Origin: Flavobacterium sp. 90
GTDB taxonomy: Bacteria > Bacteroidota > Bacteroidia > Flavobacteriales > Flavobacteriaceae
Length of the DNA stretch: 64,000 nucleotides
NCBI RefSeq assembly: GCF_004339525.1
Contig: NZ_SMGE01000001.1
Coordinates: forward strand, 5,146,001-5,210,000
Direction of reading: 5' to 3'
Part shown: positions 3,672-44,206 of the stretch, piece by piece
Layout: every line of letters starts with the position of its first letter
Numbering within the stretch: the first letter of the stretch is position 1
Made by a program: the position numbers and the translations under genes
Notes under the pieces: generated by a model
The model's input: only the letters and a program-made list of their open reading frames with translations
The model's database searches: none
What the model was told of the DNA's origin: nothing

Positions 3672-3760
3672 GGATAAGATAGTATTAATATGTGTTAATA
3701 TCAGCTTTTTTGTTAACTCATATTTAACATAGTTTTACAAGTGTAAAATTAACACTAAAT
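3672..3760 (+). promoter_or_regulatory. SusC promoter region 1: shared TATTAA-N6-TTAATA element
   Basis: A 30-bp block (3672-3701) contains the inverted repeat TATTAA-TATGTG-TTAATA (3683-3700). The block recurs at 10617-10646, 25503-25532 and 41777-41806, in each case 50-125 bp upstream of a gene of this locus. Downstream, TTAACTCA, TTTAACATA and TTTTACAAGTGT are conserved with the second SusC promoter, and TAGTTTTA is a 7-of-8 match to a TAnnTTTG -7 box. Interpreted as operator plus promoter; the binding protein is unknown. Confidence 0.6.
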
Positions 3761-3825
3761 AAAATTACCTGTCATTTTATAGGTCTTATGAAATTTAGGT
3801 TGCATACTAAAATCCATTATATCTT

Positions 3826-6800
3826 ATGAAGAAAAAAGTAAAAAGTAAAAATGTAAAACTATCAAAAATAGTTTTACTCCTATGTTTAATGTCGCTTTTT
3901 AAAGTTAGTAGTATTAGGGCAGAAACAATTAATTTATCATTTGAACAAAGTCAGGATAGAACTGTAAAAGGTAAAGTCGTTGATGAAATTGGAACGCCTT
4001 TACCCGGAGTTAATGTTATTGTAAAAGGCACTTCCAAGGGAACTGTAACTGATAAAAATGGAGAATTCAGTATCGATTTACCGGAAAAAAAAGATGTATT
4101 GGTATTTACATTTATCAGTATGAAAGATCAGGAAGTTATTGTTAATGGTAAAAATGATATTACTGTTGTAATGACAGATCAATCAGAATCACTAAAAGAA
4201 GTCGTACTTATTGGTTATCAAAGTGTACAAAAGAAAACGGTTACAGGCGCTATGACTACTGTAAAAAGCAAGGATATTGAGAATGTTCCTTATGCGTCTA
4301 TAGATCAGATATTGGCTGGTAAAGTAGCCGGACTTACTTCATTAAGTACATCTGGTGAGCCTGGAGCAAGAACAGTAACCAACATTAGAGGATCAAATAG
4401 TGTGGGTTTGGGAGGCGTTAGTTACCCGCTTTATGTGGTTGATGGAATAATTTATGACATAAACGATATGCCAAGTTCTTACGGAAATAATCCGCTGGCG
4501 TCATTGAATCCTAACGAAATCGAATCTGTAGATGTTCTTAAAGATGCTTCGGCTTCTGCGATTTATGGTTCAAGAGGAGCAAATGGAGTTATTTTAATCA
4601 AAACAAAACAAGGATCTAAAAATCAAAGACCAACATTTAGAGTTAATGCTTATACGGGTATTGGTTTAAAACCTTCTTTGAGAAAAGTAACTGTCGGGAG
4701 AATGGAGCGTCAATTAAAGTTGGACGCTATTCGAAGAAACTTCAAAGATATGGATCAAAATTTTCATATGGCTTTGACGGATAGTTTAAATGTGTCCTTT
4801 AATAATAATACGGACTGGCAGGATCTTTTTATTCAAAATGCCAGAATTAGTAATGTTGACGCAAGTGTTAGTGGAGCTTTTGGAAAAAACCAGTATAAAG
4901 TTTCTCTGGGATATTATAATGAAACAGGCGTAATTATTGGTTATCAGCTTAAGAGGTTTTCGCCTACAATGTTTTTGTCTTTAAATCTTACAGACAAAAT
5001 CAACTTTACAATAAACATGATGCCATCTTACATGGATACCAATCATGGATTTGGAAATGGAGAAACATTTCCGTTTGGAACCTGGGGATTTCCGAGTTCT
5101 TTCTGGGGCATTTCAGATAAACAAAAAAAGCAGTATCAAGGTCAGGCAGGAAATCTGGACGAAGACAAGAGAATTGGACTTTTGGCCAATACAAGGCTGA
5201 ATATTAATTTTACAAAAGACTTATTATTCACGAGTTCGTTTTCTTATAATTTCTTCGAAAACAGAAGAGATCAATTCCAAAGTTCACAAATTTATGCGAC
5301 AGATAAAGATGCCGCAGTAAGTGAGCATTATGCAACTAATATCAATGAGCTTGAGAATTATTTAACCTATACAAAAAGCTTTAATGAACGTCATAATTTT
5401 TCGGCCATATTAGGACAGCAAATATCTGAACAGGATAATAAAAGTTCTTATTTGCGTGGACAAGGTGTTTTAGGAAGTACTGTTTTTGATATTTCTCCCG
5501 GACCGGATTTGAGTGGTAATTCTTATATGGAAACAAAGAAACGAATGGGAATCTTTGGCCGTTTTAGTTATGATTATAAAGAGAAATACTTATTCTCGAG
5601 CAGTTATAGAAGAGATGGATCGTCACGTTATAATACAGATAAGCGTTGGACCACTTTTTATTCAGTAGCAGGAGGTTGGCTTGCCTCAGAAGAAACTTTT
5701 TTTAAACCGGTAAAAGATGTTGTTAATTTCTTGAAATTCAGAGGAAGTTACGGAGTTACCGGTAATGATCCCGCAAGTTATTATGCCCAATATAATATCT
5801 ATACCGGAAACGCCAGTTATGATAATTCTTCTTTTGGGATAAACAATCCTGCTGTGGCAACTACCTATAATGGAGTTCCAACCGTATCACAAAATTATGG
5901 AGGTTTTGCAGGATCAAAAGATATAACCTGGGAAAAATATCCACAAGTGAATTTTGGTATTGACCTTAATATGTTTAACAACAGAATACAAATCAATGCC
6001 GATTGGTATGCACGTGATTCCAAGGATATTTTCTATACTAATTTAGTAGCGCCGGCAACATCTGGATATGGTTTTTACAGTGGTAATGCTGTAGATATTC
6101 GAAATACCGGTTATGAGTTTACAGTTTCTACAGTGAACTTAGGAAACAATTCTACTTTTAAATGGAACACGTCTTTTAATATTGCTTTCAATGATAATTA
6201 TGTAACGAGATTGCCAGATGGTGGTAAAGATCTTACAGTTGGAGAACCTTGGCTGCAATATACATTGACTGAGGGAATGCCATTATTCAATTACAGAGTT
6301 TGGGATGTTAAAGGAGTTTATTCATCAGATTCCGATGTACCTACGGATCCTTTAACGGGGCAAAAAATGAAATTTTATGGAGAAACTATAAAAGTTGGAG
6401 ATCCAAAATATGTAGATCAAAACGGGGATTATATAATTGATAACCTGGACAAAAAATATGCAGGAAGTCCAAATCCAAAAGCAACTGGAGGTATTATTAA
6501 TGATTTTCGTTACAAGAATTGGTCAATGTCTATATTCTGCAACTTTGTTTATGGACGTAAAATATGGAATGGATATGTTTCGGACAGACTTAACGGATCA
6601 AAATCTGCAGCTCCTTGGTCAGATTGGGGTTCTCGCGCAACGGTTGGTACCATTCAGGATATAAATTATTATCAAGGACCTGGCGATACTACAGCCGAGT
6701 TTGGAACCTTGTTTACTAACTACAGTAATGTGGACCGTTTTCATATTGCCAATTCTCAATTTATTGAAGACGGAAGTTTTTTTAGAATAAAAAATATCAG

Positions 6801-7002
6801 ATTAGGGTATGCAGTTCCCGAAAATTTTGGAAAAAAAATAGGATTAAGCGCATTGCAATTTTATGCTATGGCAGATAATGTTGCTTTGTTTACAAAATCT
6901 ACTTTGCCAGATCCTGAAGCTGTTGGAGCAGATGGATTTACTACAGGAAACAATTATCCATTGGCAATTAAATTCACTCTTGGATTATCAGCAACATTCT
7001 AA
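3826..7002 (+). CDS. SusC-like TonB-dependent outer-membrane transporter
   Basis: 1058 aa. Signal peptide to about residue 32, then the carboxypeptidase-D regulatory-like domain typical of SusC (about 45-125, starting TVKGKVVDEIGTPLPGVNV), a TonB plug (about 140-255, with VLKDASASAIYGSRGANGVI) and a C-terminal beta-barrel ending in an aromatic-rich strand (ALKFTLGLSATF-type end). It imports the products of surface digestion together with its SusD partner, 18 bp downstream. The CarbopepD domain plus the plug signature define the SusC branch. Ligand cannot be read from sequence; the surrounding arabinofuranosidases, peptidases and hydroxyproline genes suggest glycopeptides or arabino-oligosaccharides. 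Transcription probably starts at the shared-operator promoter at 3672. Confidence 0.95.
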   Translation: MKKKVKSKNVKLSKIVLLLCLMSLFKVSSIRAETINLSFEQSQDRTVKGKVVDEIGTPLPGVNVIVKGTSKGTVTDKNGEFSIDLPEKKDVLVFTFISMKDQEVIVNGKNDITVVMTDQSESLKEVVLIGYQSVQKKTVTGAMTTVKSKDIENVPYASIDQILAGKVAGLTSLSTSGEPGARTVTNIRGSNSVGLGGVSYPLYVVDGIIYDINDMPSSYGNNPLASLNPNEIESVDVLKDASASAIYGSRGANGVILIKTKQGSKNQRPTFRVNAYTGIGLKPSLRKVTVGRMERQLKLDAIRRNFKDMDQNFHMALTDSLNVSFNNNTDWQDLFIQNARISNVDASVSGAFGKNQYKVSLGYYNETGVIIGYQLKRFSPTMFLSLNLTDKINFTINMMPSYMDTNHGFGNGETFPFGTWGFPSSFWGISDKQKKQYQGQAGNLDEDKRIGLLANTRLNINFTKDLLFTSSFSYNFFENRRDQFQSSQIYATDKDAAVSEHYATNINELENYLTYTKSFNERHNFSAILGQQISEQDNKSSYLRGQGVLGSTVFDISPGPDLSGNSYMETKKRMGIFGRFSYDYKEKYLFSSSYRRDGSSRYNTDKRWTTFYSVAGGWLASEETFFKPVKDVVNFLKFRGSYGVTGNDPASYYAQYNIYTGNASYDNSSFGINNPAVATTYNGVPTVSQNYGGFAGSKDITWEKYPQVNFGIDLNMFNNRIQINADWYARDSKDIFYTNLVAPATSGYGFYSGNAVDIRNTGYEFTVSTVNLGNNSTFKWNTSFNIAFNDNYVTRLPDGGKDLTVGEPWLQYTLTEGMPLFNYRVWDVKGVYSSDSDVPTDPLTGQKMKFYGETIKVGDPKYVDQNGDYIIDNLDKKYAGSPNPKATGGIINDFRYKNWSMSIFCNFVYGRKIWNGYVSDRLNGSKSAAPWSDWGSRATVGTIQDINYYQGPGDTTAEFGTLFTNYSNVDRFHIANSQFIEDGSFFRIKNIRLGYAVPENFGKKIGLSALQFYAMADNVALFTKSTLPDPEAVGADGFTTGNNYPLAIKFTLGLSATF

Positions 7003-7020
7003 AAAACAAAAACGAAAAAG

Positions 7021-8535
7021 ATGAAAACAACCTATAAAATTAAATATATACAACAAGTGCTTGCTGTTTGTCTTGTTGTTGTATCCTTGAATTCCTGCTC
7101 TGATTATTTGGATGAAAAACCAATAAGTCAGCCTTCTAATGTAACTTTTTGGAGAAATAGCAATGATGCTAATTCTGCCGTTGCAGGAGGTTATGCACAA
7201 TTGCGAAAAGCGTTAAACTCAGGATTATCATATTATGCTCACGGAGATCTTGGAACCGATGTTTTTTCTACGGAAAGAGAACTTCGATCTGATTTTACAG
7301 ATATCATGAAATTCAAATTGGGAATATCAGTTCCTTTAACAGAAACCTGGAAACCCATGTATAAGGTTAGGGATTTCTCGATTTTTTATGCAGCGATAAA
7401 ACAAGCCGATTTATGCCTTAAGCATATTCCGGAAATTCCAAAAGATGAGTTTACAGACTACGATGCACAGTACAATCAATATATTGGAGAAGCCTATTTT
7501 ATAAGAGCGTTTTCTTATTTTTATATGGCTCGTGTTTGGGGGAATGTTCCAATTGTTGATGGTTCAGATCCTGATATTGTTGATACCAAAAATTATAAAC
7601 GAGAAGATGTGGCAAAAGTACTTCTTAAAGCTACTGAAGATTGTCAGTCTGCAATCAAAAATCTTTCATGGAATTACAGCACAGATACTGATAGAGTAGT
7701 TAGAGCAAATGCCGGAGCTGCTTATGCATTACTTGCTCATATTTATGCGTGGTCGGGTAATTATAGTGCCTGCGAAACTGCTGCTGCAAAAATTATCGAT
7801 AGTAATTTTTATACCTATGTAGATCGTAACAATTACATGAATGTTTTTGCTGGTCAATCTTCAGAATCTATATTTGAAATTGCTCAAAATTCTCAAAGCG
7901 AAGCACAAGCAGGAGATCGTCAAAGTCTTACCAATTACTTACTTAGAGGAGAATATTTAAAAACACGTTTGAACGAAAAAGAAACAGTTTGGCAATATGA
8001 TCTTACTACGCTAAAGCAAACTTTCTTTAACGATGCAAATGATTTAAGAAGAACCAAAGGTTTTGCAGAATTTTCAAGCGATTGGCCCATTTTACTTAAA
8101 TATTCTAAAGTTACTTACACAAGTCCTACATCGCCTTTGAGTATCAATAACATCTTAATTTTTCGTTTGGCTGATATTGCTTTATTGCAAGCAGAAGCTC
8201 AGGCTGCACAAAATAAATTTGATCAGGCAAGAGCAACATTAAACCGTATTCGGAAAATGGCTGGTTTAGAAGATTCAACTGCAAGCGATGATAAATTATT
8301 TGAAGCAGTTATCGAAGAACGCGGTAGAGAATTGTTTATGGAAGGGCATCGTTTTTATGATTTAGTGCGATTAGCGCGTGCCAAAAAGATATACAAATTT
8401 GGAGATTCAAGTTCTAATAAAATAACAGCAAGTCAGTTTGTGAGCGGAAAAAGTTATTGGCCAATACAACCTACATTATTAGAGACCAATATATTGTTTA
8501 CGCAAACTGAATATTGGAAATCTGAAGCACAATAA
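7021..8535 (+). CDS. SusD/RagB-family surface glycan-binding lipoprotein
   Basis: 504 aa. Lipobox with lipid-anchor Cys26 (SLNSC), followed by the acidic SDYLDEKP start seen in SusD proteins. TPR-type helices (for example QYIGEAYFIRAFSYFYMARVWG) and the C-terminal ERGRELFMEGHRFYDLVR signature are clear. SusD proteins sit as a lid on the SusC barrel at the cell surface and hold the ligand. Directly downstream of SusC in the same operon. Confidence 0.95.
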   Translation: MKTTYKIKYIQQVLAVCLVVVSLNSCSDYLDEKPISQPSNVTFWRNSNDANSAVAGGYAQLRKALNSGLSYYAHGDLGTDVFSTERELRSDFTDIMKFKLGISVPLTETWKPMYKVRDFSIFYAAIKQADLCLKHIPEIPKDEFTDYDAQYNQYIGEAYFIRAFSYFYMARVWGNVPIVDGSDPDIVDTKNYKREDVAKVLLKATEDCQSAIKNLSWNYSTDTDRVVRANAGAAYALLAHIYAWSGNYSACETAAAKIIDSNFYTYVDRNNYMNVFAGQSSESIFEIAQNSQSEAQAGDRQSLTNYLLRGEYLKTRLNEKETVWQYDLTTLKQTFFNDANDLRRTKGFAEFSSDWPILLKYSKVTYTSPTSPLSINNILIFRLADIALLQAEAQAAQNKFDQARATLNRIRKMAGLEDSTASDDKLFEAVIEERGRELFMEGHRFYDLVRLARAKKIYKFGDSSSNKITASQFVSGKSYWPIQPTLLETNILFTQTEYWKSEAQ

Positions 8536-8564
8536 TTTATAATAAATATATAAAAACTACAACT

Positions 8565-9221: not shown

Positions 9222-9239
9222 TTTAAAATAAAATTCATT

Positions 9240-10232: not shown

Positions 10233-10249
10233 TTGAAATATATAACCCG

Positions 10250-10450: not shown

Positions 10451-10616
10451 AAAATCTTTGCGATATGGTTTAAACATACAGTAAATCAGTACATGATTAT
10501 GGATAACATTATATGTTCTGTTTTTGGGTTATAATTATAGATATTTAAAAAATATACATAAAATATTGTTAAAATGATTAGATATTTTTAAATAAACAAA
10601 TAGTTAGTCAAAAAAG

Positions 10617-10700
10617 GGATAATATAATACTATGATGTGGTAATATCGGCATTTTTCTTAACTCAGGTTTAACATAATTTTACAAGTGTTAAAAATACAC
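10617..10700 (+). promoter_or_regulatory. SusC promoter region 2: shared operator-like element
   Basis: The 30-bp block at 10617-10646 aligns without gaps to the one at 3672-3701. The inverted repeat is degraded here (TACTAT...GGTAATAT). The following about 60 bp also matches the first SusC promoter (TTAACTCA, TTTAACATA, TTTTACAAGTGT), and TAATTTTA is the -7 candidate. Confidence 0.6.
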
Positions 10701-10718
10701 TAACCAAATTATTAAATT

Positions 10719-13700
10719 ATGAAGCCAACCACGCATGTTTTAAAAAGTACTGCAACATCCTCTCACAGAGAAAAGATGTTCTTTACGATTTTGTTATTGT
10801 TTGTTTTTTTTAGTTCATTTTCACAACAGAAGATCAGCGGTAAAATTACAGATGCAAATAAGATTCCAATACCGGGAGTGTCAGTTTTAGAAAAAAACAC
10901 AACTAACGGAGCTGTAAGTGATTTCGATGGAAATTTTCAAATTACACTTAAAAATAAAAACTCAAAATTGGTTTTTACTTATTTAGGTTTTGTAACTCAG
11001 GAAATTTCAGTTTCAGATAAGAATGTAGTAAGTGTTGTTCTTCAGGAAAGTAAACAAGAATTAAATGAAGTAGTAGTTGTAGGATACGGAACTCAGAAAA
11101 AATCAAGAATTACAAGTGCGATAGCGAGTGTAAAAGAAAAAGATTTTACAAGAGGAGCAATCAACGATGCTTCTGATCTTATAAAAGGTAAAGTTGCCGG
11201 TCTAACAATTAGCAACGGTTCCGGAGATCCGGGTTCATCGCCAAATATTACATTACGTGGATTTTCAAGTTTAAAAGGGAATAACGGTCCTTTGGTCTTA
11301 ATTAATGGTGTACCGGGAAGTATTGATACGGTTGCTCCAAATGAAATTGCTTCGATAGATGTTTTGAAAGATGCATCGGCAGCAGCAATTTACGGAACCA
11401 GAGGAGCAAATGGAGTAATTCTTATTACAACAAAAACAGTAAATAGCGATATACCGCCAACAATTACGTACTCAACATTTACCACAACATCTACTTTTGC
11501 TAAAAAAGCTAAATTTATAGATGCCAGTCAACAAAGAGCTTTACGCTCTCAAGGTTTTACAATACCTTTTGCTGATGGCGGTGCCAGTACAAATTGGTTA
11601 GATGAAATCTCAAAAACGGGAGTATCTCAAAATCATAATTTAGCTTTTAAAGGTGGAACGGCTAAAACAAATTATATAGTAAACCTTAATTATGTGAATC
11701 AAACCGGGGTTTTTAATAATACCTATAATAAAGAATACCGATTTTCATTTGATGTCAATCATAGCATGTTCAATGATAAGTTAAGGATTAATTTAAGCTT
11801 ATTAAACGGAACACAAGATATGGGTATTGAGGAGGGAATTGCTGCATATGCATACAGACAAGCAATGATTAGAAATCCTACTGCTCCGGTATATAATCCA
11901 AATGGTACTTATAATGAAGATAGAAATAAGCTTCAATATTACAATCCAGTAGCGATTTTGAATGAAACGACGCAAGATAGAAATAGTACTTGGCAAAGAT
12001 TTACCGCTAATTTAACTTTGGATTTATTACCGGGATGGGATGTAGGTACGCAGCTTTCAAAAAATAAAAATACAGCTTTAAATGGATATGTTGAAACTAA
12101 AAAACATTATTCAAATACAATAAATGGTAGAAATGGAGTTGCTTCAAGAGATACAGGAGCTACAGATAATGATTATGTTGAGATAACATCAAAATATCAT
12201 AAAACTTTAGGAAACCACGACTTTACAGTATTAGGCGGTTATAGTTATCAATATACTGTTAATGAAGGATTTTCTGCCCGTAATTCTGATTTTCCAACAG
12301 ATGCATTTTCGTATAATAATTTAGAAGCAGGAAATGGTTTGTCAGATGGTACTGCATCTATGGATAGTTATAAAAATGACAGTAAATTAATTGGATTCTT
12401 TGGTAGGTTAAATTATAATTTTAACAGCAAATACGATTTGTTATTTAGTATCAGACGAGAAGGTTCTTCTAAGTTTGGAAACAATCACAAATGGGGTAAT
12501 TTCCCGGCGGTTTCTGCAGGATGGAGTATCAATAAAGAATCTTTCCTAAAAGACGCTACTGCTGTAAATACTTTAAAATTAAGAGCAGGTTATGGAGAAA
12601 CAGGAGTAATACCAAATGATCCTTATATGTCAATGACATTGTACAAATATGATGGATATTTCTTTAGTAACGGAAAATGGGTTAAAGGTTTAGAGCCGGT
12701 AAGTAATCCAAATCCTGATTTGCGTTGGGAGAAAACAGCAGAGGTAAATATTGGTCTTGATTTTGGTTTTTTCAATAATAGAATTAGCGGAAGCGTTGAT
12801 TTCTATAATAAAAAAACAAGTGATATGTTATGGGATTATAAAGTACCAACTCCTCCTTATTTGTTCCCTCAAATTACGGCAAATGTTGGAAAAATGGAAA
12901 ATAAAGGATTTGAAATTCTTCTTAATACAATTCCTGTAAGAACAAAAGATTTCACTTGGAACTCATCAATGACTTTTTCGCACAATAAAAATAAGCTAAC
13001 GAGTCTTTCTAATGATTTATATAAAATTGAAGGAGACTATTTGAATACCGGAAATACAGGAGATCCAATTTCATTTGAAACACACAGATTAGAAGTAGGA
13101 CAATCAATTGGTAATTTCTGGGGGTTGAAATCTGTAGATATAACGGGACCTTCATCTAAACCGGAAGAAGATAGAAAATGGATCGTAGAATTACCTGACG
13201 GTACTAGAAAAACACTTAGTACAGAATTGTATAACGATGCTAATAAACAATATTTAGGAAACGGTATTCCGCAATATTATGCTGGATGGACGAATACTTT
13301 TTCTTATAAAAGATTTGATTTAAGCGTTGTATTAATAGGAGCTTTCGATTATCAAATCCTAAATACACAACGTATGTTTTATGAAAATCCAACAATTGCT
13401 TACAATATGTTAGACAGTGCATATGATAAAGTATATGGTAAAGAGTTACTAAACTACAATCAAACCTACGTAAGTTATTATATTGAACAAGGAGATTATG
13501 TAAAAGTAGACAATGTAACTTTCTCCTATAATTTTGATGTAAAACCATTGAAATTTATCAATGCAATGAGATTGTATGTGTCTGGAAATAATTTAGCTAC
13601 AATTACAAAATACAAAGGACTTGACCCAGAGATAAAAAGAGAAGATCCTTTGTCACAAGGAATGGATGGAAGAGATAAATATCCAAGTACAAGAGGTATT

Positions 13701-13727
13701 ACACTAGGTTTAAATCTAACTTTTTAA
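10719..13727 (+). CDS. SusC-like TonB-dependent outer-membrane transporter
   Basis: 1002 aa. After an N-terminal signal (hydrophobic core about residues 20-35; an ATG at 10776 could be the true start) come a CarbopepD-like domain (KISGKITDANKIPIPGVSVLEK), the SusC linker ELNEVVVVGYGTQKK, a plug with IDVLKDASAAAIYGTRGANGVI, and a beta-barrel. Paired with a SusD gene 11 bp downstream. Its promoter shares about 90 bp with that of the first SusC gene, so the two pairs are probably induced together, perhaps for different fragments of one substrate. Confidence 0.95.
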   Translation: MKPTTHVLKSTATSSHREKMFFTILLLFVFFSSFSQQKISGKITDANKIPIPGVSVLEKNTTNGAVSDFDGNFQITLKNKNSKLVFTYLGFVTQEISVSDKNVVSVVLQESKQELNEVVVVGYGTQKKSRITSAIASVKEKDFTRGAINDASDLIKGKVAGLTISNGSGDPGSSPNITLRGFSSLKGNNGPLVLINGVPGSIDTVAPNEIASIDVLKDASAAAIYGTRGANGVILITTKTVNSDIPPTITYSTFTTTSTFAKKAKFIDASQQRALRSQGFTIPFADGGASTNWLDEISKTGVSQNHNLAFKGGTAKTNYIVNLNYVNQTGVFNNTYNKEYRFSFDVNHSMFNDKLRINLSLLNGTQDMGIEEGIAAYAYRQAMIRNPTAPVYNPNGTYNEDRNKLQYYNPVAILNETTQDRNSTWQRFTANLTLDLLPGWDVGTQLSKNKNTALNGYVETKKHYSNTINGRNGVASRDTGATDNDYVEITSKYHKTLGNHDFTVLGGYSYQYTVNEGFSARNSDFPTDAFSYNNLEAGNGLSDGTASMDSYKNDSKLIGFFGRLNYNFNSKYDLLFSIRREGSSKFGNNHKWGNFPAVSAGWSINKESFLKDATAVNTLKLRAGYGETGVIPNDPYMSMTLYKYDGYFFSNGKWVKGLEPVSNPNPDLRWEKTAEVNIGLDFGFFNNRISGSVDFYNKKTSDMLWDYKVPTPPYLFPQITANVGKMENKGFEILLNTIPVRTKDFTWNSSMTFSHNKNKLTSLSNDLYKIEGDYLNTGNTGDPISFETHRLEVGQSIGNFWGLKSVDITGPSSKPEEDRKWIVELPDGTRKTLSTELYNDANKQYLGNGIPQYYAGWTNTFSYKRFDLSVVLIGAFDYQILNTQRMFYENPTIAYNMLDSAYDKVYGKELLNYNQTYVSYYIEQGDYVKVDNVTFSYNFDVKPLKFINAMRLYVSGNNLATITKYKGLDPEIKREDPLSQGMDGRDKYPSTRGITLGLNLTF

Positions 13728-13738
13728 ATTAAATCAAA

Positions 13739-15346: not shown

Positions 15347-15395
15347 AAATAATATGAAGATTTTACAAGTTGGTTACTTGTAATTATAAGTGTGT

Positions 15396-18057: not shown

Positions 18058-18183
18058 GTTTTTTAGATATGTAAATATTAACAAAAAAAACAGATTATAC
18101 AAAAGAATTGGTAATATAGTACTGATAAAGGCTAATAATGACACAGAACTACTTTTTTTTAAGCTTTATTTTTGATAAAAATT
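18058..18183. promoter_or_regulatory. Divergent promoter region, AraC regulator / hydroxyproline operon
   Basis: 126-bp A+T-rich gap between divergent genes. TATTTTTG at 18167-18174 matches the TAnnTTTG -7 consensus for the operon but leaves a very short leader. No -33 TTG at the right distance, consistent with an activator-dependent promoter. No inverted repeat could be singled out as the AraC site. Confidence 0.4.
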
Positions 18184-35558: not shown

Positions 35559-37697
35559 ATGCCGAAAAAGAAACTAATTTACTGTTTATGCATGCTTATT
35601 TTTGCAGGAACTATTTTTGCTCAAAAAGATGTTGCTGTAAATTCTCCCGGCACTGGAAATCCAATTTTGCCGGGTTGGTTTGCCGATCCTACGATTAAAA
35701 AATTTGGAGATACCTATTACATCTATGCCACGACAGACAATGAAATGCTGGCATCGGGCGCTCCAACCGTCTGGTACAGTAAAGACTTTAAAAACTGGTA
35801 TAATTATATCATGGAAATTCCTTCTTTTTCGGCAAAATCGATTACCAATTTTTGGGCACCCGATATTATCGAAGGAAAAGATGGTAAATATTATTTGTAT
35901 TTTGGAAACTGCGAAATAGGCTGTAATATTTATGGCTATGTTTCGGATTCTCCTGTTGGACCTTGGAAAAAATTAAGCGAAAATGATACTCCGGTGATTT
36001 CAAACGGATATCCAAAAGAGAATTTTCCATCTCTGGATGCGCAGTTTTTTACCGATACTGATGGTAAAATATACAGTTATTGGGGAACTTGGGTGCATTA
36101 TAACGGCGGATATGCTGTTGGTGAATTGAACAAGAATAATATGAGTGAAATGATGCATTCAACCAATATTCCGTTAGAGCAAACGCCGGCACCTTTTGAA
36201 GCTGCTTACATGATGAAAAAAGGTTCTAAATACATTTTGATGTATTCCGGAGCGTCTTGTCATGATGAAACATATAATGTTCGTTATTCTTATTCGAATT
36301 CGCCATACGGACCTTTTACGCCCGGAAAAAACAATCCGATTTTGAGTACAAATGAAGATCAAACCGTTCACGGTCCCGGTCATCATTCGATCTTACAGGA
36401 AAAAGACGATTATTATATCGTTTATCACAAACATGATTATCCAATGACGCGAGGCGGACTTGCGAGACAAGTTTGTATTGATAAATTGATTTTTGAAAAT
36501 GATTCGACAATCAAAAAAGTCGTTCCTTCAAGCAAAGGAATTGCTGATTTAGTGAAGTCTGAAGTTCCTGAAAATATTGCTTTTGGAGCAAAAACTACCG
36601 CTTCGTCATTTTATCATTTAAAGTCGACACAATACGATTACGAATACAAACCTTCGTATGCGACAGATGATAATAATGCCACAATGTGGAAAGCAGCAGA
36701 TAATACTTCAGCGCAACATTTAATTATTGATTTAGGTTCTGAGAAGAAAGTAAAACGAGTAATGACGCAATTTGAATTTGCGAGTTATTATTACCAATAT
36801 AAATTGGAATATTCTGCCGATGGTAAAAAATGGAATTTATTTGCTGATAAATCCAAAAATCGTATAGCAGGAAGTCCAATGATTGATGATAATGATGTAA
36901 CAGCGCGTTTTATAAAATTAACAGTTCTGGGTACTGAAAAAACAGGACTTTATGCCGCAATTTGGAACATTAAAGTCTACAGTTCATTATTTGAGATTCC
37001 CTTGCAATTGCAAAACAAAGAATCGAAAATAAGTCCGGCGCCAAAAAGTTCTAAGAAATTATTGGTAGATTTTGATGCCAGTAAAATTCAAAATAAAGTC
37101 GCTATAAATTCAGTTTCGAATAAAGGATCTCTTGGCGGAACTTTTGTCAAAAGCGGAGACGTTTCTTTAGAAAATGTAGACGGAATAAAAGCGTTCAATT
37201 TTAAAAATGGAGCTTTTACTTTAGATAAAGCGGTGCCAAAAACATTGGCTTGGAATGGTTCTTATACCGTTGCAACCTGGGTTAAAAATCCTGAAATACC
37301 AAAAGAAGGTGATATTTTGTTATCATGGTGCGACAGAAACGAATTTGGCTTAGCCAATTCCTACAATACATTGGCTTACAATAGCGGAAGTTATGGCGCA
37401 GGAGTACATCTTGACGGTCATTTTGATATGAAATACAATAAAGTTCCCGAAGCTAATAAATGGCATTTTATTGTTTTAACTTTTGATGGTGTTGTAGAGA
37501 AAGTGTATGTCGATGGCGTTTTAGACAATTCGCAGAATATGCTTTTATCTTCGGCAATTGATAAAGCCAAAATAATAATTGGAGCATCTGATATTGGAGA
37601 AAATTTCTCCGGTTTTATGGCTTCATTGCGTTTGTATGATTATGCACTTAATGAAAAGGATTTAGTTAAACTAATGAATGACACCGCAAAAAAATAA
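35559..37697 (+). CDS. GH43-family glycosidase with discoidin (F5/8C, CBM32-like) and LamG domains
   Basis: 712 aa, signal peptide to about 21. The GH43 five-blade propeller (about 30-315) has the base Asp43 (WFADPT), an Asp in SLDAQFF as pKa modulator and the acid Glu in PFEAAYM. Next comes a discoidin-like module (about 335-475: KTTASSFYHL...IIDLGSEKKVKRV) and a C-terminal LamG module (about 495-705). GH43 members mostly remove alpha-L-arabinofuranose or beta-xylose. Beside a GH127 the expected role is removal of terminal alpha-L-arabinofuranose from hydroxyproline arabinosides. Last gene of the run 25583-37697. Confidence 0.88.
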   Translation: MPKKKLIYCLCMLIFAGTIFAQKDVAVNSPGTGNPILPGWFADPTIKKFGDTYYIYATTDNEMLASGAPTVWYSKDFKNWYNYIMEIPSFSAKSITNFWAPDIIEGKDGKYYLYFGNCEIGCNIYGYVSDSPVGPWKKLSENDTPVISNGYPKENFPSLDAQFFTDTDGKIYSYWGTWVHYNGGYAVGELNKNNMSEMMHSTNIPLEQTPAPFEAAYMMKKGSKYILMYSGASCHDETYNVRYSYSNSPYGPFTPGKNNPILSTNEDQTVHGPGHHSILQEKDDYYIVYHKHDYPMTRGGLARQVCIDKLIFENDSTIKKVVPSSKGIADLVKSEVPENIAFGAKTTASSFYHLKSTQYDYEYKPSYATDDNNATMWKAADNTSAQHLIIDLGSEKKVKRVMTQFEFASYYYQYKLEYSADGKKWNLFADKSKNRIAGSPMIDDNDVTARFIKLTVLGTEKTGLYAAIWNIKVYSSLFEIPLQLQNKESKISPAPKSSKKLLVDFDASKIQNKVAINSVSNKGSLGGTFVKSGDVSLENVDGIKAFNFKNGAFTLDKAVPKTLAWNGSYTVATWVKNPEIPKEGDILLSWCDRNEFGLANSYNTLAYNSGSYGAGVHLDGHFDMKYNKVPEANKWHFIVLTFDGVVEKVYVDGVLDNSQNMLLSSAIDKAKIIIGASDIGENFSGFMASLRLYDYALNEKDLVKLMNDTAKK

Positions 37698-39415: not shown

Positions 39416-39446
39416 GACCTCACAGGTTTTTAAAACCTGTGAGGTC
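39416..39446 (+). repeat. Dispersed palindrome GACCTCACAGG-type, second copy
   Basis: Perfect inverted repeat GACCTCACAGGTTTT / AAAACCTGTGAGGTC in the gap between the metallopeptidase and the GH36 gene; sister of 25289-25315. Confidence 0.65.
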
Positions 39447-39483
39447 TGGTAAAACTTCTGAAGCATCATTAAAAAATAAAAAA

Positions 39484-41694
39484 ATGAACCGATTATTACT
39501 TTTAGTATTTACAATTGTTTTTTCTGCTGTTCAGGCGCAGGAAAGTTCCCTGATTAAAATTGAAACCGAAAATTCGGCATTGGTTTTAAAAGTGGGAAAA
39601 AACAAGAAATTATATCAAACGTATTTGGGAACAAAGCTTGATAATGGTTCAGAATATGAATTGATTTCGAAAGAAAATACAAAAAAGTTTGTTGTAAATG
39701 ATGGTAATCCTTTAATCGATTTGCGTCATTTGGCTTATCCAACTTTTGGAACGGACAATTTGTTTGAACCCGCAATCAGAATGACGCATAATGACGGAAA
39801 TCCATCTTTGGAATTAGAATATCAAAACCATACTTCTCAAAAAGTAAGCGATGATATTTCTGAAATTACTATAAAATTAAAAGATCCGCAATATCCGGTT
39901 TTTGTCAATCTTCATTATAAAATATTTTATTCAGAAAATGTAATAGAAACCTGGACAGAAATTCAGCATCAGGAAAAAAAATCGGTTGTACTTTACAATT
40001 ATGCTTCGGTTGCCTTGCATTTAGATTCCGATAAATATTGGCTGACTCAGTTTTACAGTGACGTTGTAGAAGAAATGAGAATGGAAGAAACTCAGCTTGT
40101 TCGAGGTGCTAAAACTATTGATTCGAAGTTGGGCGTAAGAACGAATATGTTTGCTTCGCCAAGTTTTTTTCTTTCGTTAAATTCAAAATCTAGTGAAAAT
40201 AACGGAGAAGTAATCGCAGGAACAATTGCATGGTCAGGGAATTTTAAGCATACGTTTGAAATTGATAATAATAATGAATTAAGAATCGTTTCGGGAATAA
40301 ACGAATTTGCTTCAGAATACAATTTAAAACCTGGAGAAATATTTAAAACTCCGGCTTTTATTTATACTTTTTCGAACAAAGGAAAAGGGCAGGCGAGTAG
40401 AAATTTACATACTTGGGCAAAAAAATACGGAATTAAAGATGGTGAAAAACCACGCTTGACTTTATTGAATAATTGGGAAACGACGTTCTTTGATTTTGAT
40501 CAGGTAAAATTGAGCAATATGTTTCAAGATGCTAAAACATTAGGCGTTGATATGTTTTTGTTGGATGATGGTTGGTTTGGGAATAAATATCCAAGAAGTG
40601 GTTCTGTTTCGGGTTTGGGAGATTGGCAGGCTACAAAAGCTAAACTTCCTGACGGAATTGGTTTTTTAATGCAGGAAGCTAAAAATACTAACGTGAAATT
40701 TGGTATTTGGATTGAGCCTGAAATGGTAAATGAAAAAAGCGAATTGTATGAGAAACATCCGGATTGGGTTTTAAGTTTGCCTAATCGTGAAAAAAGTATT
40801 TATCGAACACAATTGGTTTTGGATTTGAGTAATCCAAAAGTTCAGGATTTTGTTTTTAAGGTTGTCGACGACATTATGCAAACAGAATCGGGTGTTGCTT
40901 TTTTTAAATGGGATTGTAACCGAATGATGACAAGTGCGTATTCGACTTATTTAAAAAATGAACAATCGCATTTGTTTATTGAATACACAAGAGGATTGTA
41001 CAAAGTTCTGGACAGAATAAAAAGTAAATATCCAAACTTGCCAATGATGCTTTGTGCCGGCGGCGGTGGAAGGGTAGATTATGGATTACTGAATTATTTC
41101 ACGGAGTTTTGGGCAAGCGATAACACAGATCCGTTTGACCGCGTATTTATTCAATGGGGATATTCTAATTTTTATCCGGCATTATCGACTTGTAACCACG
41201 TAACTTCGATGGGAAATCAATCGATAAAATTTAAAACCGATGTTGCAATGATGGGCAAATTAGGTTTTGATATTCATGTTGGAGGTTTAAAAGACAACGA
41301 ATTAAAATATTGTCAGGAAGCGGTTTCTAATTATAAACGATTAAGTCCGGTGATTTGGCAAGGAAATTTATTCCGATTAATTTCTCCTTATGAAGATACA
41401 AGGGCTGTTTTGATGTACGTGAATGAAAACAAAACGCAATCGGTGCTTTTTTCTTATACGCTGCATCCGCTTACAGATCCTAATTATGGTTTGGTAAAAC
41501 TTGAAGGACTTGATGCTTCAAAAAAATATAGCGTTAAAGAAATTAATCTGATGCCTCAGAGTAAAAATACTTTTGAAGAATCTGGTACTATTTATTCCGG
41601 TGATTTTCTGATGAAAATAGGATTGAAAGTTTCTTCTTCAAGACAAGAAAGTAGTGTTGTACTTGAGATTACTGATGTTGATTTGAGGAATTAG
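39484..41694 (+). CDS. GH36-family alpha-galactosidase, secreted
   Basis: 736 aa from the ATG at 39484, which starts a clear signal peptide (MNRLLLLVFTIVFSAVQAQ); the upstream extension lacks one. N-terminal beta-supersandwich (about 25-310), then the TIM barrel with LNNWE, LDDGWFG, FGIWIEPEMV, nucleophile Asp477 in FFKWDCNR, CAGGGGRVDYG and acid/base Asp546 in WASDNTD. C-terminal beta domain to 736. The family releases terminal alpha-galactose. In plant extensins serine carries a single alpha-galactose, so the enzyme fits the proposed substrate; raffinose or galactomannan are alternative substrates if the gene is only a neighbour. Confidence 0.92.
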   Translation: MNRLLLLVFTIVFSAVQAQESSLIKIETENSALVLKVGKNKKLYQTYLGTKLDNGSEYELISKENTKKFVVNDGNPLIDLRHLAYPTFGTDNLFEPAIRMTHNDGNPSLELEYQNHTSQKVSDDISEITIKLKDPQYPVFVNLHYKIFYSENVIETWTEIQHQEKKSVVLYNYASVALHLDSDKYWLTQFYSDVVEEMRMEETQLVRGAKTIDSKLGVRTNMFASPSFFLSLNSKSSENNGEVIAGTIAWSGNFKHTFEIDNNNELRIVSGINEFASEYNLKPGEIFKTPAFIYTFSNKGKGQASRNLHTWAKKYGIKDGEKPRLTLLNNWETTFFDFDQVKLSNMFQDAKTLGVDMFLLDDGWFGNKYPRSGSVSGLGDWQATKAKLPDGIGFLMQEAKNTNVKFGIWIEPEMVNEKSELYEKHPDWVLSLPNREKSIYRTQLVLDLSNPKVQDFVFKVVDDIMQTESGVAFFKWDCNRMMTSAYSTYLKNEQSHLFIEYTRGLYKVLDRIKSKYPNLPMMLCAGGGGRVDYGLLNYFTEFWASDNTDPFDRVFIQWGYSNFYPALSTCNHVTSMGNQSIKFKTDVAMMGKLGFDIHVGGLKDNELKYCQEAVSNYKRLSPVIWQGNLFRLISPYEDTRAVLMYVNENKTQSVLFSYTLHPLTDPNYGLVKLEGLDASKKYSVKEINLMPQSKNTFEESGTIYSGDFLMKIGLKVSSSRQESSVVLEITDVDLRN

Positions 41695-41776
41695 TTTTTA
41701 AAATTTAAGGTTTTTCTAGTGTGAGAATTAGTAATTATCTAACTATTTGTATAACAGAATAGTATAGTTAAAGAAT

Positions 41777-41806
41777 AGGTAAAATAGTATTAAATGTTGT
41801 TAATAT
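41777..41806 (+). promoter_or_regulatory. Shared operator-like element upstream of the T9SS metallopeptidase gene
   Basis: 30-bp block related to 3672-3701, with the perfect inverted repeat TATTAA-ATGTTG-TTAATA. Ends 77 bp before the start codon; TACATTTA downstream is a 7-of-8 match to the -7 box. Confidence 0.55.
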
Positions 41807-41883
41807 TGTCTTACAAATATTTAAGTGTGATATTTACATTTACAAAAAAATGCTATTTCTTAACCTATTAATTAATTTAACCT

Positions 41884-44121
41884 ATGAAAAAACTATTACT
41901 ACTGATTGTCGTTTTTCTATCCAGTTATTTTGCAATTGCACAGAAAACGCTTTTTACTCCCACAGAATGGAGTGATCCCAACAATGAATTTTACAATAAA
42001 GTATCCAACACCAGAAAGTATGAGTCTACGAACTTTGTCGTTTACTGGGGTGATAAAGTGGGTACAAATCCTGCGACGTATTCTGATACAGCACTTAGAT
42101 TTACGCCTAAATCGGTTGCAGATACGCTTGAAACTAGCTTTAAACGCTACATTACCGATTTGCATTTTATAAATAATGCGCCAACAACAAATTTTGGAAA
42201 ATACAAGATCATTATTATGATGATGAACACCTGGACTTCTACAGATCCAAGGTTACAAGCCTTTGCACAAGCCAGCTCGTTTAGTGGTACAATTGGCGCA
42301 ATGTTTGTACATCCTGAAGCTACAAGAGATGGTGGAGCATTGTCACACGAATTTGCGCACACGCTGCAAATGATGATGGGCATTCAGGAAAACCCAGGCG
42401 CCGGTAGAGCATTTTCGGGATATGATTGGGCAGGTCCGTTTTTTGAAGGACATGCCAATTTTATGCGAGCCCAGGCTTACTCACAATGGGCAGAAATTGA
42501 CGGAACTCTCACCCGCTGGATTCAGACGAAACATTTTATGTGGTCCTCGAATCGACATCATTACACGAATTTTCATTTAATGTATTATGTGCAGGAAAAA
42601 GAAGGTTTTGATTTTACTAGAAGAATGTGGGCAGAATCTATGAACGAAGAGCATCCGCTTGAAACCATTAAGCGATTAAAAGGTTTTACGCAAGATCAAC
42701 TTGATGATTATCTTTGGGGATATGCACAAAGACAACCTGCATTCGATTATCCTATTCAATGGAATTCTCAAATTAATGCGACAAGTAATTTTGGAAAAAC
42801 CATTAGAAACGTGTACAACAGCATCAAAACAAATATGCCTCGTTATACTAGTAGAGAATACACGCTTCTAACTAAAGTTACAGGTACAACAGATCAATAT
42901 TATACTAATAATGACTGGGCTCCACAAGATTACGGAATGAACGTAATTCCTTTATACCCAACTTGTACAGGAACTCAAAAGAAAGTTACGATTAAATTTA
43001 AAGGACATACTGAGGTTAATACAACTCAGGCTGGATGGAGATATGGTTTTGTTACTACAAAAACTGATGGTACTATTTCGCGTTACAGTCCAATGTATAA
43101 AGTGGATGGTGAAGCTTCATTTACCCTTAATACCGCTACAGAAGCCAATATTTATTTGGTAGTATTTGCTGCGCCAAAAGTCCATGTAAATTACAATATG
43201 GATGTTGGTTACCCAAAACAAAGAAGATATCCTTATGAACTAAAAATTGCAAATGCTACTCCAGAAGGATTTCAGCCTGCAGCAAATTTTAGAAGTTATC
43301 TTAAAACAAACGGACATTTGCACACTAACGGTGGCGGATGGGTTTCTAATAACGCGACTGTTGCGTCTACAGTATATGTAGGTCCATATGCAATTGTGAG
43401 AGCCGGAAATGTTTCAGGAAATGCACGTATAGAAGATTATGCTATGGTAGATGGAGGAACTATAAATGGTAGTGCAATTATAAGAGGAAATGCATGTGTG
43501 TACAACGCAACGATAGCAAACACTGCAATTGTTGAAGGTAATGCTTGGATGGAAGGCGGATCTGTAAAAAATACAGCCAATATAAAAGGAAACGCAATGT
43601 TGTTTGCGGGAGATTTTGGAAGTTCGGTTGTGGTAGGAGGAGATGCGGAAATTGGAAGTTGTTCTACACCAGGTGTTTATTTACAGTTTCCTTACTGGAG
43701 AAACGGAAGAGACAATTGTGATGGTAAAGGAGCAAGCGATACTTCTAATGTTGATATCAATGCAACATTTACGAACTTTACAGCTGCACAAATGGCTTTT
43801 AGTACCACACCAAACTGTACTGTAACTACGTTGGCAACTAATAAGTCAACTTTTGATTCAGCAGCAGAAGTAGATTTAAGTGTTTATCCAAATCCGGCAA
43901 AAGGAAATCTAAACATTACCTTTTTACAAACGGAAGAAGAAAAAACAACTATTGCTTTGTTTGATATTAACGGACAAAAAATAGCTACAATTGCAGATAA
44001 AGTTTACGAAGCCGGAAGAATTGACATTCAATACAATTCTGGTAACTTAACTCCGGGAGTATATTTATTACATATTCAAAGAGGAAATAATGTTGTAAGC
44101 AAAACATTTATCAAAGAATAA
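41884..44121 (+). CDS. T9SS-secreted HExxH metallopeptidase-like protein with beta-helix region (DUF6055-like)
   Basis: 745 aa. Signal peptide to about 20; DUF6055-like metallopeptidase domain (about 25-460) with zinc motif HEFAH (His155-His159) and a downstream FFEGHANFMRAQ block; a region of hexapeptide-like repeats (about 484-600: VYVGPYAIVRAGNVSGNARI, IIRGNACVYNATIANTAIVEGNA) predicted as a left-handed parallel beta-helix; and a C-terminal type A sorting domain (about 662-745: VYPNPAKGN, LFDINGQ, LTPGVYLLHI). The sorting domain shows export by the type IX system to the cell surface or medium. Paralogue of the protein at 38050. Function unknown; a surface endopeptidase or glycopeptidase starting attack on the substrate is the likely role. 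Confidence 0.78.
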   Translation: MKKLLLLIVVFLSSYFAIAQKTLFTPTEWSDPNNEFYNKVSNTRKYESTNFVVYWGDKVGTNPATYSDTALRFTPKSVADTLETSFKRYITDLHFINNAPTTNFGKYKIIIMMMNTWTSTDPRLQAFAQASSFSGTIGAMFVHPEATRDGGALSHEFAHTLQMMMGIQENPGAGRAFSGYDWAGPFFEGHANFMRAQAYSQWAEIDGTLTRWIQTKHFMWSSNRHHYTNFHLMYYVQEKEGFDFTRRMWAESMNEEHPLETIKRLKGFTQDQLDDYLWGYAQRQPAFDYPIQWNSQINATSNFGKTIRNVYNSIKTNMPRYTSREYTLLTKVTGTTDQYYTNNDWAPQDYGMNVIPLYPTCTGTQKKVTIKFKGHTEVNTTQAGWRYGFVTTKTDGTISRYSPMYKVDGEASFTLNTATEANIYLVVFAAPKVHVNYNMDVGYPKQRRYPYELKIANATPEGFQPAANFRSYLKTNGHLHTNGGGWVSNNATVASTVYVGPYAIVRAGNVSGNARIEDYAMVDGGTINGSAIIRGNACVYNATIANTAIVEGNAWMEGGSVKNTANIKGNAMLFAGDFGSSVVVGGDAEIGSCSTPGVYLQFPYWRNGRDNCDGKGASDTSNVDINATFTNFTAAQMAFSTTPNCTVTTLATNKSTFDSAAEVDLSVYPNPAKGNLNITFLQTEEEKTTIALFDINGQKIATIADKVYEAGRIDIQYNSGNLTPGVYLLHIQRGNNVVSKTFIKE

Positions 44122-44173
44122 GAATTCATTATTTTATTGATTCTAACGAAATCATTAGAATTACAGAAATACA

Positions 44174-44206
44174 AAAACCTCCAAAGTCATTGATTTTGGA
44201 GGTTTT
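44174..44206 (+). terminator. Intrinsic terminator closing the glycoprotein-utilisation locus
   Basis: Perfect 12-bp stem AAAACCTCCAAA with TTTGGAGGTTTT; T-rich on the plus strand. Between convergent genes. Confidence 0.8.

What the first reader, a model, noticed from the sequence alone, without database searches (positions are those of the whole stretch)
3672..44206. A locus that appears to take plant extensin-type glycoproteins down to 2-oxoglutarate
Seen: two SusCD pairs, M61, S9, DUF885 and two HExxH proteins, GH127 with intact Cys/Glu zinc site, GH43, GH36, and a complete hydroxyproline operon (epimerase with both Cys, FAD dehydrogenase, DapA-like deaminase, semialdehyde dehydrogenase) with a divergent AraC regulator. 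Known: extensins carry beta-L-arabinofuranosyl hydroxyproline capped by alpha-L-arabinofuranose, and alpha-galactosyl serine; HypBA1-type GH127 enzymes act on the former. Inference: the glycosidases strip the glycans, the peptidases open the Hyp-rich backbone, and released hydroxyproline enters the TCA cycle. Glycan and amino acid arms for one substrate in one locus would be a glycoprotein-utilisation system, broader than a normal polysaccharide utilisation locus.
Basis: partly seen in the sequence, partly recalled or inferred. Interest (0 to 1): 0.88.

Follow-up and report, generated by a model that had tools for sequence, protein, structure and literature searches.

The report
Plant glycoprotein-eating gene regulon in Flavobacterium
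A Flavobacterium carries one block of genes, apparently switched together by a single regulator, that looks built to take apart sugar-coated, hydroxyproline-rich plant cell-wall proteins and burn both the sugars and the unusual amino acid.

Summary
In detail: 21 genes (3826-44121) of a Flavobacterium combine two SusCD pairs, peptidases, glycosidases and a complete 4-hydroxyproline operon. Corrections: the 'GH127' is GH146-type, a family with characterised Araf-beta-Hyp-cleaving members; the two 'HExxH proteins' are DUF6055/Svx gluzincins, the larger with the two-domain layout of the Pectobacterium peptidase shown in 2026 to cleave extensins. New evidence: a 36-bp motif learned only from relatives' AraC/DapA promoters recurs before five operons here (one site weak) and before the GH146 operon in 29 of 80 relatives. 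HypE lies within 10 kb of this GH146 in 38 of 80 loci, down to 45 bp, in several arrangements. In 299 genomes of the family all 7 with DUF6055 are among the 14 with GH146; within the genus only 4 of 10 are. The genome has a separate arabinan-type locus and a second Hyp locus lacking its epimerase. Best reading: a one-regulator hydroxyproline-rich-glycoprotein utilisation regulon, extensin-type most likely. Weak points: the alpha-galactosidase arm is poorly conserved, DUF5695 resembles an arabinogalactan lyase, and nothing was assayed.

The parts
3670..3705 (+). AraC-type operator before SusC1 (120 bp before the ATG)
   Evidence: PWM 18.1 bits, PWM trained without the window
3826..7002 (+). SusC1, TonB-dependent importer
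   Evidence: TIGR04056 741 bits, cut-off 368
7021..8535 (+). SusD1 lipoprotein
   Evidence: PF07980/PF14322
8565..9221 (+). lipA, 218-aa lipoprotein without a family; travels with SusCD1
   Evidence: no Pfam or NCBIfam family; SusC1-SusD1-lipA-lipB cassette also in L021, L049, L055, L073, L078
9240..10232 (+). lipB, 330-aa lipoprotein without a family; as lipA
10615..10650 (+). operator before SusC2 (68 bp before the ATG)
   Evidence: PWM 16.9
10719..13727 (+). SusC2
   Evidence: TIGR04056 756 bits
13739..15346 (+). SusD2
   Evidence: PF07980
15370..17037 (+). M61 glycyl-aminopeptidase-type peptidase, HExxH intact
   Evidence: PF05299, PF17899; motif at 324
17209..18144 (-). AraC-family regulator (start probably near 18057)
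   Evidence: HTH_18 1.4e-21, weak cupin match; divergent from the Hyp operon in relatives
18107..18142 (+). operator in the AraC/DapA intergenic region
   Evidence: PWM 26.2; conserved in relatives
18172..19104 (+). DapA-like, probable pyrroline-4-hydroxy-2-carboxylate deaminase
   Evidence: PF00701 210 bits; operon context
19125..20693 (+). probable 2-oxoglutarate semialdehyde dehydrogenase
   Evidence: PF00171; best NCBIfam matches dioxovalerate/KGSA dehydrogenases, all below cut-off; PDB 3v4c, 1eyy
20697..21707 (+). HypE, 4-hydroxyproline 2-epimerase
   Evidence: NF010578 593 bits, cut-off 376; both Cys motifs
21784..23019 (+). FAD-dependent D-amino-acid (D-Hyp) dehydrogenase
   Evidence: PF01266 1.4e-67; NF001933 281 bits, below cut-off 383
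23862..25277 (+). amino-acid permease
   Evidence: PF13520
25501..25536 (+). operator before the S9-GH146 operon (46 bp before the ATG)
   Evidence: PWM 18.5; 45-50 bp spacing in many relatives
25583..27832 (+). S9/DPPIV-type prolyl peptidase
   Evidence: PF00930, PF00326
27888..30947 (+). GH146-type beta-L-arabinofuranosidase with LamG and Big_4 domains
   Evidence: PF07944, PF20736; 5opj 222 bits; E748, C750, C818, C819
31085..32776 (+). DUF885 metallopeptidase-like protein (HELLPGH)
   Evidence: PF05960
32862..35552 (+). DUF5695; beta-sandwich plus (alpha/alpha) barrel, remote PL27 relative
35559..37697 (+). GH43 with F5/8 C and LamG domains (subfamily not assigned)
   Evidence: PF04616; 5msx 142 bits
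38050..39393 (+). SvxA: one-domain DUF6055 gluzincin
   Evidence: PF19527 463 bits; NF040510 59.6 bits; HELGH at 163
39439..41694 (+). GH36 alpha-galactosidase family enzyme
   Evidence: PF02065 with N and C domains; KWDCN at 490 and SDN at 560
41775..41810 (+). operator before SvxB (73 bp before the ATG); weakest site
   Evidence: PWM 10.7, below the null maximum of 13.7 but far above the next window hit, 3.9
41884..44121 (+). SvxB: DUF6055 peptidase plus beta-helix (acyltransferase-like) domain plus T9SS sorting tail
   Evidence: NF040510 218 bits over model 40-559 of 601; HEFAH at 155, E188; repeated short strands in the model

Best explanation
The locus is a hydroxyproline-rich-glycoprotein utilisation regulon under one AraC-family regulator, aimed most likely at extensin-type plant (and related algal) wall glycoproteins. 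Proposed mechanism: T9SS-exported SvxB, and SvxA, cut the glycosylated Hyp-rich backbone; GH43 removes terminal alpha-Araf, GH146 the beta-Araf chain down to the Araf-beta-Hyp bond, GH36 the alpha-Gal on Ser; the two SusCD pairs import glycopeptides and peptides; S9, M61 and DUF885 release free Hyp; the permease brings it into the cytoplasm; HypE, D-Hyp dehydrogenase, DapA-like deaminase and semialdehyde dehydrogenase turn it into 2-oxoglutarate. Arabinose goes to the L-arabinose isomerase and sugar kinase found elsewhere in the genome. The regulator probably senses Hyp or a pathway intermediate. Shown by computation: gene content, intact active-site motifs, linkage and profile associations, shared operator motif. 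Inferred: every activity, substrate, location, the inducer and the binding of AraC to the motif.
For: Operator: a PWM from 26 relatives' AraC/DapA sites (window excluded) finds in the window 18107 (26.2), 25501 (18.5), 3670 (18.1), 10615 (16.9), 41775 (10.7); next hit 3.9; 50 Markov simulations gave a top hit of mean 7.0, max 13.7. Genome-wide, a degenerate pattern with up to 2 mismatches hits 11 places, 5 of them here (reversed-pattern control: 7 hits). Before the GH146 operon, 29 of 80 relatives score 14 or more, none with any of 200 column-permuted PWMs; by presence in the flank of an AraC at least 55% identical: 23 of 29; with a more distant AraC 0 of 7; with none 6 of 44. Profiles: in 299 genomes of the family GH146 in 14, DUF6055 in 7, all 7 inside the 14 (expected 0.33); in 345 genomes of the phylum 12 and 10, shared 6, all 6 within about 13 kb. 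Svx cleaves extensin in vitro and needs its second domain for that (PMC13164431). GH146 XeHypBA1 and Bll4HypBA1 act on Araf-beta-Hyp (PMC10850190 passages). A separate arabinan-type locus in the genome (L118: GH127, GH43s, GH51-type enzymes, L-arabinose isomerase) shows no operator hit above 7.
Against: No activity or expression data. GH36 is in 0 of 80 GH146 flanks (200 bits or more; the 10-kb flanks reach only part of its place in the window's order) and sits beside a Hyp locus without this GH146 in L106, L108, L109; only one relative (L115) showed another possible alpha-galactosidase family, GH97. SvxA-like genes are in 9 of 80 flanks, and 24 of 47 searched relatives' genomes have no DUF6055. 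Within Flavobacterium, 6 of 10 genomes with strong DUF6055 hits lack both this GH146 and HypE, in other contexts as far as scanned. DUF5695 resembles PL27, an arabinogalactan-protein lyase family. SvxB is far below the Svx equivalog cut-off (218 vs 625), and counted from the motif it lacks the W and G of the proposed sugar site. The SvxA-GH36 genes and the permease have no site, and SvxB's is weak. Of 12 distant HypE operons tested only 4 carry a site directly upstream. 42 of 80 GH146 loci have no HypE within 10 kb. No GH121 was seen in the window scans.
Confidence: 0.7

Rival explanations
1. The real substrate is arabinogalactan protein (or a mixture of hydroxyproline-rich glycoproteins), with DUF5695 removing rhamnose/glucuronate caps and GH146/GH43 trimming arabinose; the Hyp operon then handles an AGP backbone.
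For: DUF5695's best structural match over most of its length is PL27 BACCELL_00875, and PL27 enzymes release Rha from gum arabic (PMC8377490 passages). A close relative, L004, has a GH42 beta-galactosidase-family gene between DUF5695 and GH43. GH146 Bll3HypBA1 acts on beta1,3-Araf, also on rice AGP (PMC10850190 passages).
Against: The Pfam scans of the window genes show no GH16, GH30, GH2, GH35, GH79, GH105 or GH145; the only galactose-type enzyme is GH36 (the GH43 subfamily is not assigned). The Svx authors argue by docking that AGP does not fit Svx (PMC9266454, PMC10815107 passages).
Confidence: 0.17
2. Two neighbouring but separate systems: a peptide/hydroxyproline (collagen-like) locus at about 3.7-25 kb and an arabinan or pectin side-chain locus at about 25.5-44 kb.
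For: Hyp operons without this GH146 in the same genus stand with, between them, aminopeptidase P, DPPIV, M43 and SusC (L105, L108, L112), and the own genome has such a locus (L117). HypE and this GH146 are not within 10 kb in 42 of 80 loci.
Against: The same operator stands before both halves; HypE and GH146 lie 45-59 bp apart on one strand in L032, L035, L062; both arms carry the operator although not near each other in L014/L120, L036/L121, L040/L123; the arabinan role is already filled by L118.
Confidence: 0.08
3. The shared motif is real but is a general Hyp-response element; the glycosidases were recruited next to a Hyp operon for another substrate, such as arabinosylated algal wall glycoproteins in the marine relatives.
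For: Many of the linked loci are from Allomuricauda, Flagellimonas and Muricauda, genera recalled to be largely marine; the motif also stands before Hyp operons without this GH146 (these were among the training sites).
Against: The window genome is close to Flavobacterium sp. CF108, recalled to be a poplar-root isolate; SvxB matches a family with an extensin-cleaving member. This broadens the main reading more than it contradicts it.
Confidence: 0.05

Closest known systems
Bifidobacterium longum hypAA-hypBA2-hypBA1 cluster and Xanthomonas euvesicatoria XeHyp enzymes (GH43, GH121, GH146/127)
   Same: Same logic for the Ara4-Hyp glycan: alpha-Araf removal, then beta-Araf removal down to Hyp; a prolyl oligopeptidase pseudogene lies beside xehypAA in Xanthomonas (PMC6085000, abstract and Discussion read).
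   Different: No GH121 match in the window scans; here SusCD import, Svx peptidases, further peptidases and Hyp catabolism are added. X. euvesicatoria cannot use arabinose (same paper), and those enzymes were studied for pathogenicity.
Svx/AvrXca gluzincin peptidases (Pectobacterium, Dickeya, Xanthomonas)
   Same: DUF6055 peptidase domain with HExxH and downstream Glu; SvxB also covers the second, acyltransferase-like part of the model.
   Different: Below the equivalog cut-off; T9SS tail; placed in a nutrient locus with glycosidases and Hyp catabolism.
Polysaccharide utilisation loci of Bacteroidota
   Same: SusCD pairs, lipoproteins, exported glycosidases, local regulator.
   Different: Contains the catabolic operon for the amino acid of a protein backbone and five peptidase-type proteins; apparently controlled by the AraC protein of the Hyp operon instead of a SusR, HTCS or ECF regulator (the last comparison is recalled).
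Hyp loci without this GH146 in other Flavobacterium (such as L105, L108, L112) and L117 in the own genome
   Same: Same AraC-DapA-ALDH-HypE-DAO core and motif, with SusC and a DPPIV-type peptidase (L117 has lost ALDH, HypE and most of DAO).
   Different: Aminopeptidase P (L108, L117) and M43 (L105, L112, L117) instead of the glycosidases and Svx; read here as collagen- or peptide-type.

Membership tests
Polysaccharide-utilisation-type locus | adjacent SusC-SusD pair with degradative enzymes | tested here: met
   two pairs
GH127 (HypBA1 type) | closest to GH127 rather than sister families | tested here: not met
   3wkw 28.6 bits against GH146 5opj 222 bits; a clearer GH127-type gene, full-length to PF07944 at 382 bits, lies at L118
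GH146 | closest solved relatives are GH146 | tested here: met
   5opj 222, 8k7y 139 bits
GH146 | Zn/catalytic Glu and three Cys | tested here: met
   E748, C750, C818, C819, cf. E723, C725, C804, C805 in PMC10850190
GH146 | beta-L-arabinofuranosidase activity on Araf-beta-Hyp | not testable with these tools
   needs enzyme
Svx/AvrXca peptidase (SvxB) | NCBIfam equivalog cut-off 625 bits | tested here: not met
   218 bits
Svx/AvrXca peptidase (SvxB) | peptidase plus acyltransferase-like domain | tested here: met
   model 40-559 of 601; repeated short strands of a beta-helix in the AF2 model, low confidence there
Svx/AvrXca peptidase (SvxB) | HEXXHX(8,28)E | tested here: met
   H155, E156, H159, E188 invariant in 16 of 16; 28 residues between H159 and E188
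Svx/AvrXca peptidase (SvxB) | predicted sugar-site residues W136, G137, N171 | tested here: inconclusive
   counted by offset from the motif only: N present, W and G not; not aligned to Pba Svx
4-hydroxyproline epimerase | equivalog cut-off and both catalytic Cys | tested here: met
   593 vs 376 bits
trans-4-Hyp degradation pathway | epimerase, D-Hyp oxidase/dehydrogenase, deaminase and KGSA dehydrogenase in one operon | tested here: met
   families and order; the last three are below their NCBIfam cut-offs, so their reactions rest on context
PL27 (DUF5695) | PL27 fold and catalytic residues | tested here: inconclusive

The most novel reading that the evidence does not exclude
A class of 'glycoprotein utilisation regulons': a conserved hydroxyproline core (AraC, DapA, ALDH, HypE, DAO) whose AraC protein also commands exchangeable substrate front ends, one for collagen-like peptides and one for arabinosylated plant or algal wall glycoproteins, and keeps controlling them in trans when the genes separate. 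Svx peptidases, known as plant-pathogen virulence factors, would in Bacteroidota be foraging enzymes, with hydroxyproline as the signal that reports a hydroxyproline-rich glycoprotein.
Probability: 0.5. Interest if true: 0.82.

Novelty: new variant of a known kind. Interest (0 to 1): 0.7.

Why it matters
Extensins and other hydroxyproline-rich glycoproteins are abundant, recalcitrant wall proteins (recalled), yet my searches of the held open-licence papers found no described bacterial locus that uses both their glycan and their amino acid: extensin with utilisation loci and hydroxyproline (3 papers listed), DUF6055/DUF5695, GH127 with hydroxyproline and Bacteroidetes, GH146 with extensin, hydroxyproline with SusD and extensin, hydroxyproline 2-epimerase with glycoside hydrolase and Flavobacterium. 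I judged most of these by title and abstract start; the nearest was an in-silico mention (Latescibacteria, PMC4454575, passages). Most subscription papers are not in that library. If right, the case extends the utilisation-locus idea from polysaccharides to a whole glycoprotein, gives Svx peptidases a nutritional role outside pathogens, names a regulator with a testable operator and predicts functions for DUF6055, DUF5695, lipA and lipB.

Tried and rejected
Arabinan/pectin reading: weakened by the separate arabinan-type locus L118. Pure collagen reading: collagen-type loci exist (L105, L108, L112, L117), and in the stretches read they show neither this GH146 nor Svx. The Flavobacterium -33/-7 consensus gave no full promoter in the 11 leaders tested. 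phmmer of SvxA and of DUF5695 against PDB found nothing; profile and fold did better for DUF5695. Foldseek and VIA-align on the SvxB model (mean pLDDT 65) gave gluzincin-type peptidases (lugdulysin, M1, aureolysin); no M60 peptidase domain was listed, which excludes nothing. DapA against PDB at 1e-40 gave nothing. I did not place the GH146 on a tree with XeHypBA1 or Bll4HypBA1, and GH121 was not searched genome-wide. The operator test has limits: the core expression that picked the training sites was written after seeing an alignment that included the window; 26 of 30 relatives' intergenic regions gave a training site (L005, L006, L050, L071 did not match the expression); relatives are not independent; hypergeometric values ignore phylogeny (by genus at phylum level: 2 of 4 DUF6055 genera shared with 8 GH146 genera of 154, P 0.014).

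Of 12 unlinked HypE operons, 4 carry a site directly upstream (L120, L121, L123, L128), 1 has a site elsewhere (L129), 7 have none above 9 (L122, L124-L127, L130, L131). In three genomes (L014, L036, L040) both arms carry it.
Full report
What is there. The window (64 kb of a 6.65-Mb one-contig genome, C1:5146001-5210000) belongs to a Flavobacterium: its GH146 protein is 97% identical to that of Flavobacterium sp. CF108. Between 3826 and 44121 lie 21 genes, all on the + strand except one AraC regulator. Flanking genes (acetolactate synthase small subunit, EptA and PAP2 upstream; glyoxalase, sigma-54 activators and a TMEM175 channel downstream) have no evident relation.

Correction 1: GH146, not GH127. 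The 1019-aa enzyme matches PF07944 in two pieces and is closest to 5opj (BT0349 by the papers; 222 bits) and 8k7y (Bll3HypBA1; 139 bits), and far from HypBA1 (28.6 bits). The Zn-binding Glu and three Cys are present. According to PMC10850190 (passages read), GH146 XeHypBA1 hydrolyses mainly Araf-beta-Hyp and Bll4HypBA1 acts on Araf-beta-linked Hyp of the glycoprotein backbone, while BT0349 acts on arabinan-derived oligosaccharides and Bll3HypBA1 on beta1,3-Araf; so the family fits the substrate but does not fix it.

Correction 2: the HExxH proteins are Svx-like. Both match PF19527 (463 and 441 bits). The 745-aa one aligns to 40-559 of the 601-position NCBIfam Svx/AvrXca model (218 bits; cut-off 625) and ends in a T9SS sorting tail. 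Its AlphaFold model (mean pLDDT 65, low in parts) shows a gluzincin-type domain, a beta-sandwich, repeated short strands of a beta-helix, and the tail. Pectobacterium Svx degraded carrot extensin but not mucin or concanavalin A, and lost this when its acyltransferase-like domain was removed (PMC13164431, abstract, Results and part of the Discussion read). HExxH and the downstream Glu are invariant in 16 of 16 aligned DUF6055 proteins.

The hydroxyproline operon. HypE is well over the curated cut-off (593 vs 376). The DapA-like, ALDH and DAO proteins match the right families and order, but none exceeds its NCBIfam cut-off, so their exact reactions rest on context. HypE occurs once in the genome.

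Linkage. One scan of GTDB contigs with the GH146 protein returned the best 80 of 103 loci, some cut short by contig ends. HypE lies within 10 kb in 38 of 80: upstream on the same strand in most, on the opposite strand (L029, L047) or downstream (L047, L060, L070, L072, L073) in others. In L032, L035 and L062 it ends 45-59 bp before GH146 on the same strand. In 299 genomes of the family, HypE is in 152 and this GH146 in 14, 13 shared, and by the printed coordinates 9 of the 13 are within 10 kb, 3 on other contigs and 1 about 0.9 Mb away. In 101 genomes of the genus 15 have HypE over the cut-off and 6 the GH146, all 6 shared; 3 are within 10 kb, 2 at 20-22 kb, 1 on different small contigs.

Svx association. 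All 7 DUF6055 genomes of 299 in the family (6 genera) are among the 14 GH146 genomes; in 345 genomes of the phylum 6 of 10 are, and in those 6 the genes are within about 13 kb, in G723 about 0.4 kb apart. Against this, in 101 genomes of the genus 10 have strong DUF6055 hits and only 4 of them the GH146; the other 6 (L097-L102) sit in other contexts, of which only a few neighbours in L097, L100 and L101 were scanned. Of 47 genomes searched, chosen by me from the 80 loci, 23 have DUF6055. In Parapedobacter (L021, L078) the order SusC1-SusD1-lipA-lipB-Svx-GH146 is contiguous.

One regulon. Aligning AraC/DapA intergenic regions of 30 relatives with the window showed a conserved block. A 36-bp PWM from 26 of the relatives, the window excluded, was scanned over the window: the five best places all lie 29-120 bp before genes of this locus: DapA 26.2, S9-GH146 operon 18.5, SusC1 18.1, SusC2 16.9, SvxB 10.7; the sixth is 3.9. 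The best of 50 simulated windows reached 13.7 (mean 7.0), so the SvxB site alone is not significant. Genome-wide, a degenerate pattern with up to 2 mismatches hit 11 places; 5 are here, 2 are in the second Hyp locus; the reversed-pattern control hit 7. In relatives the same PWM finds a site before the GH146 operon in 29 of 80 at 14 bits or more, usually 45-50 bp from the S9 start; 200 column-permuted PWMs found none. The site follows the regulator: 23 of 29 loci with an AraC at least 55% identical in the flank, 0 of 7 with a more distant AraC, 6 of 44 with none. In three genomes where HypE is on another contig or about 1 Mb away (L014/L120, L036/L121, L040/L123) both arms keep the site; 8 of 12 distant HypE operons examined have none directly upstream.

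Natural controls in the same genome. L118 is an arabinan-type locus with GH127, two GH43 by Pfam (a third by tblastn) and GH51-type enzymes, L-arabinose isomerase and a sugar kinase, and no PWM hit above 7. L117 is a second Hyp-type locus with aminopeptidase P, DPPIV, SusCD and M43; between DapA and the last 72 residues of DAO the ALDH, HypE and rest of DAO are missing, so this genome's only HypE is in the window.

Verdict. Observation confirmed with corrections; interpretation supported and extended by a shared operator; all enzyme functions remain predictions. The closest published systems that I read handle the glycan only (PMC6085000, abstract and Discussion; PMC10850190 passages). Novelty: a new variant of the SusCD utilisation-locus kind.

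Noticed in passing
L117 (G000:C1:3200000-3219900), about 5659-19900: Second AraC-DapA Hyp-type locus of the same genome with ALDH, HypE and the first about 339 residues of DAO missing, leaving DapA and a DAO remnant before aminopeptidase P, DPPIV, SusCD and M43; motif sites kept.
   Followed up: partly
window 23020-23861 and 10233-10718: Several copies, in both orientations, of a repeat around GTCATTTCGACGGAGGAGAAATC (with variants) fill the long gaps before the permease and SusC2; looks like a dispersed intergenic repeat.
   Followed up: no
L004:17832-19937 against window near 35552: A GH42 gene stands between DUF5695 and GH43 in relative L004 (ORFs of similar length in others) and is absent from the window.
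   Followed up: partly
L118 (G000:C1:2111000-2130900): Separate arabinan-type locus with a GH127-type enzyme full-length to PF07944, GH43 enzymes, two GH51-type enzymes, L-arabinose isomerase and a sugar kinase.
   Followed up: partly
window 49800-53447: Sigma-54 response regulator next to a TPR-containing HisKA_2 histidine kinase, opposite strand, outside the locus; another sigma-54 activator at 45557-47146.
   Followed up: no
L104, L107, and hits: Six of 101 genus genomes have a second proline-racemase-family gene (about 261-274 bits, below the 4-Hyp epimerase cut-off), in five of them about 11-35 kb from HypE, in G006 on another contig; possibly a 3-Hyp dehydratase.
   Followed up: no
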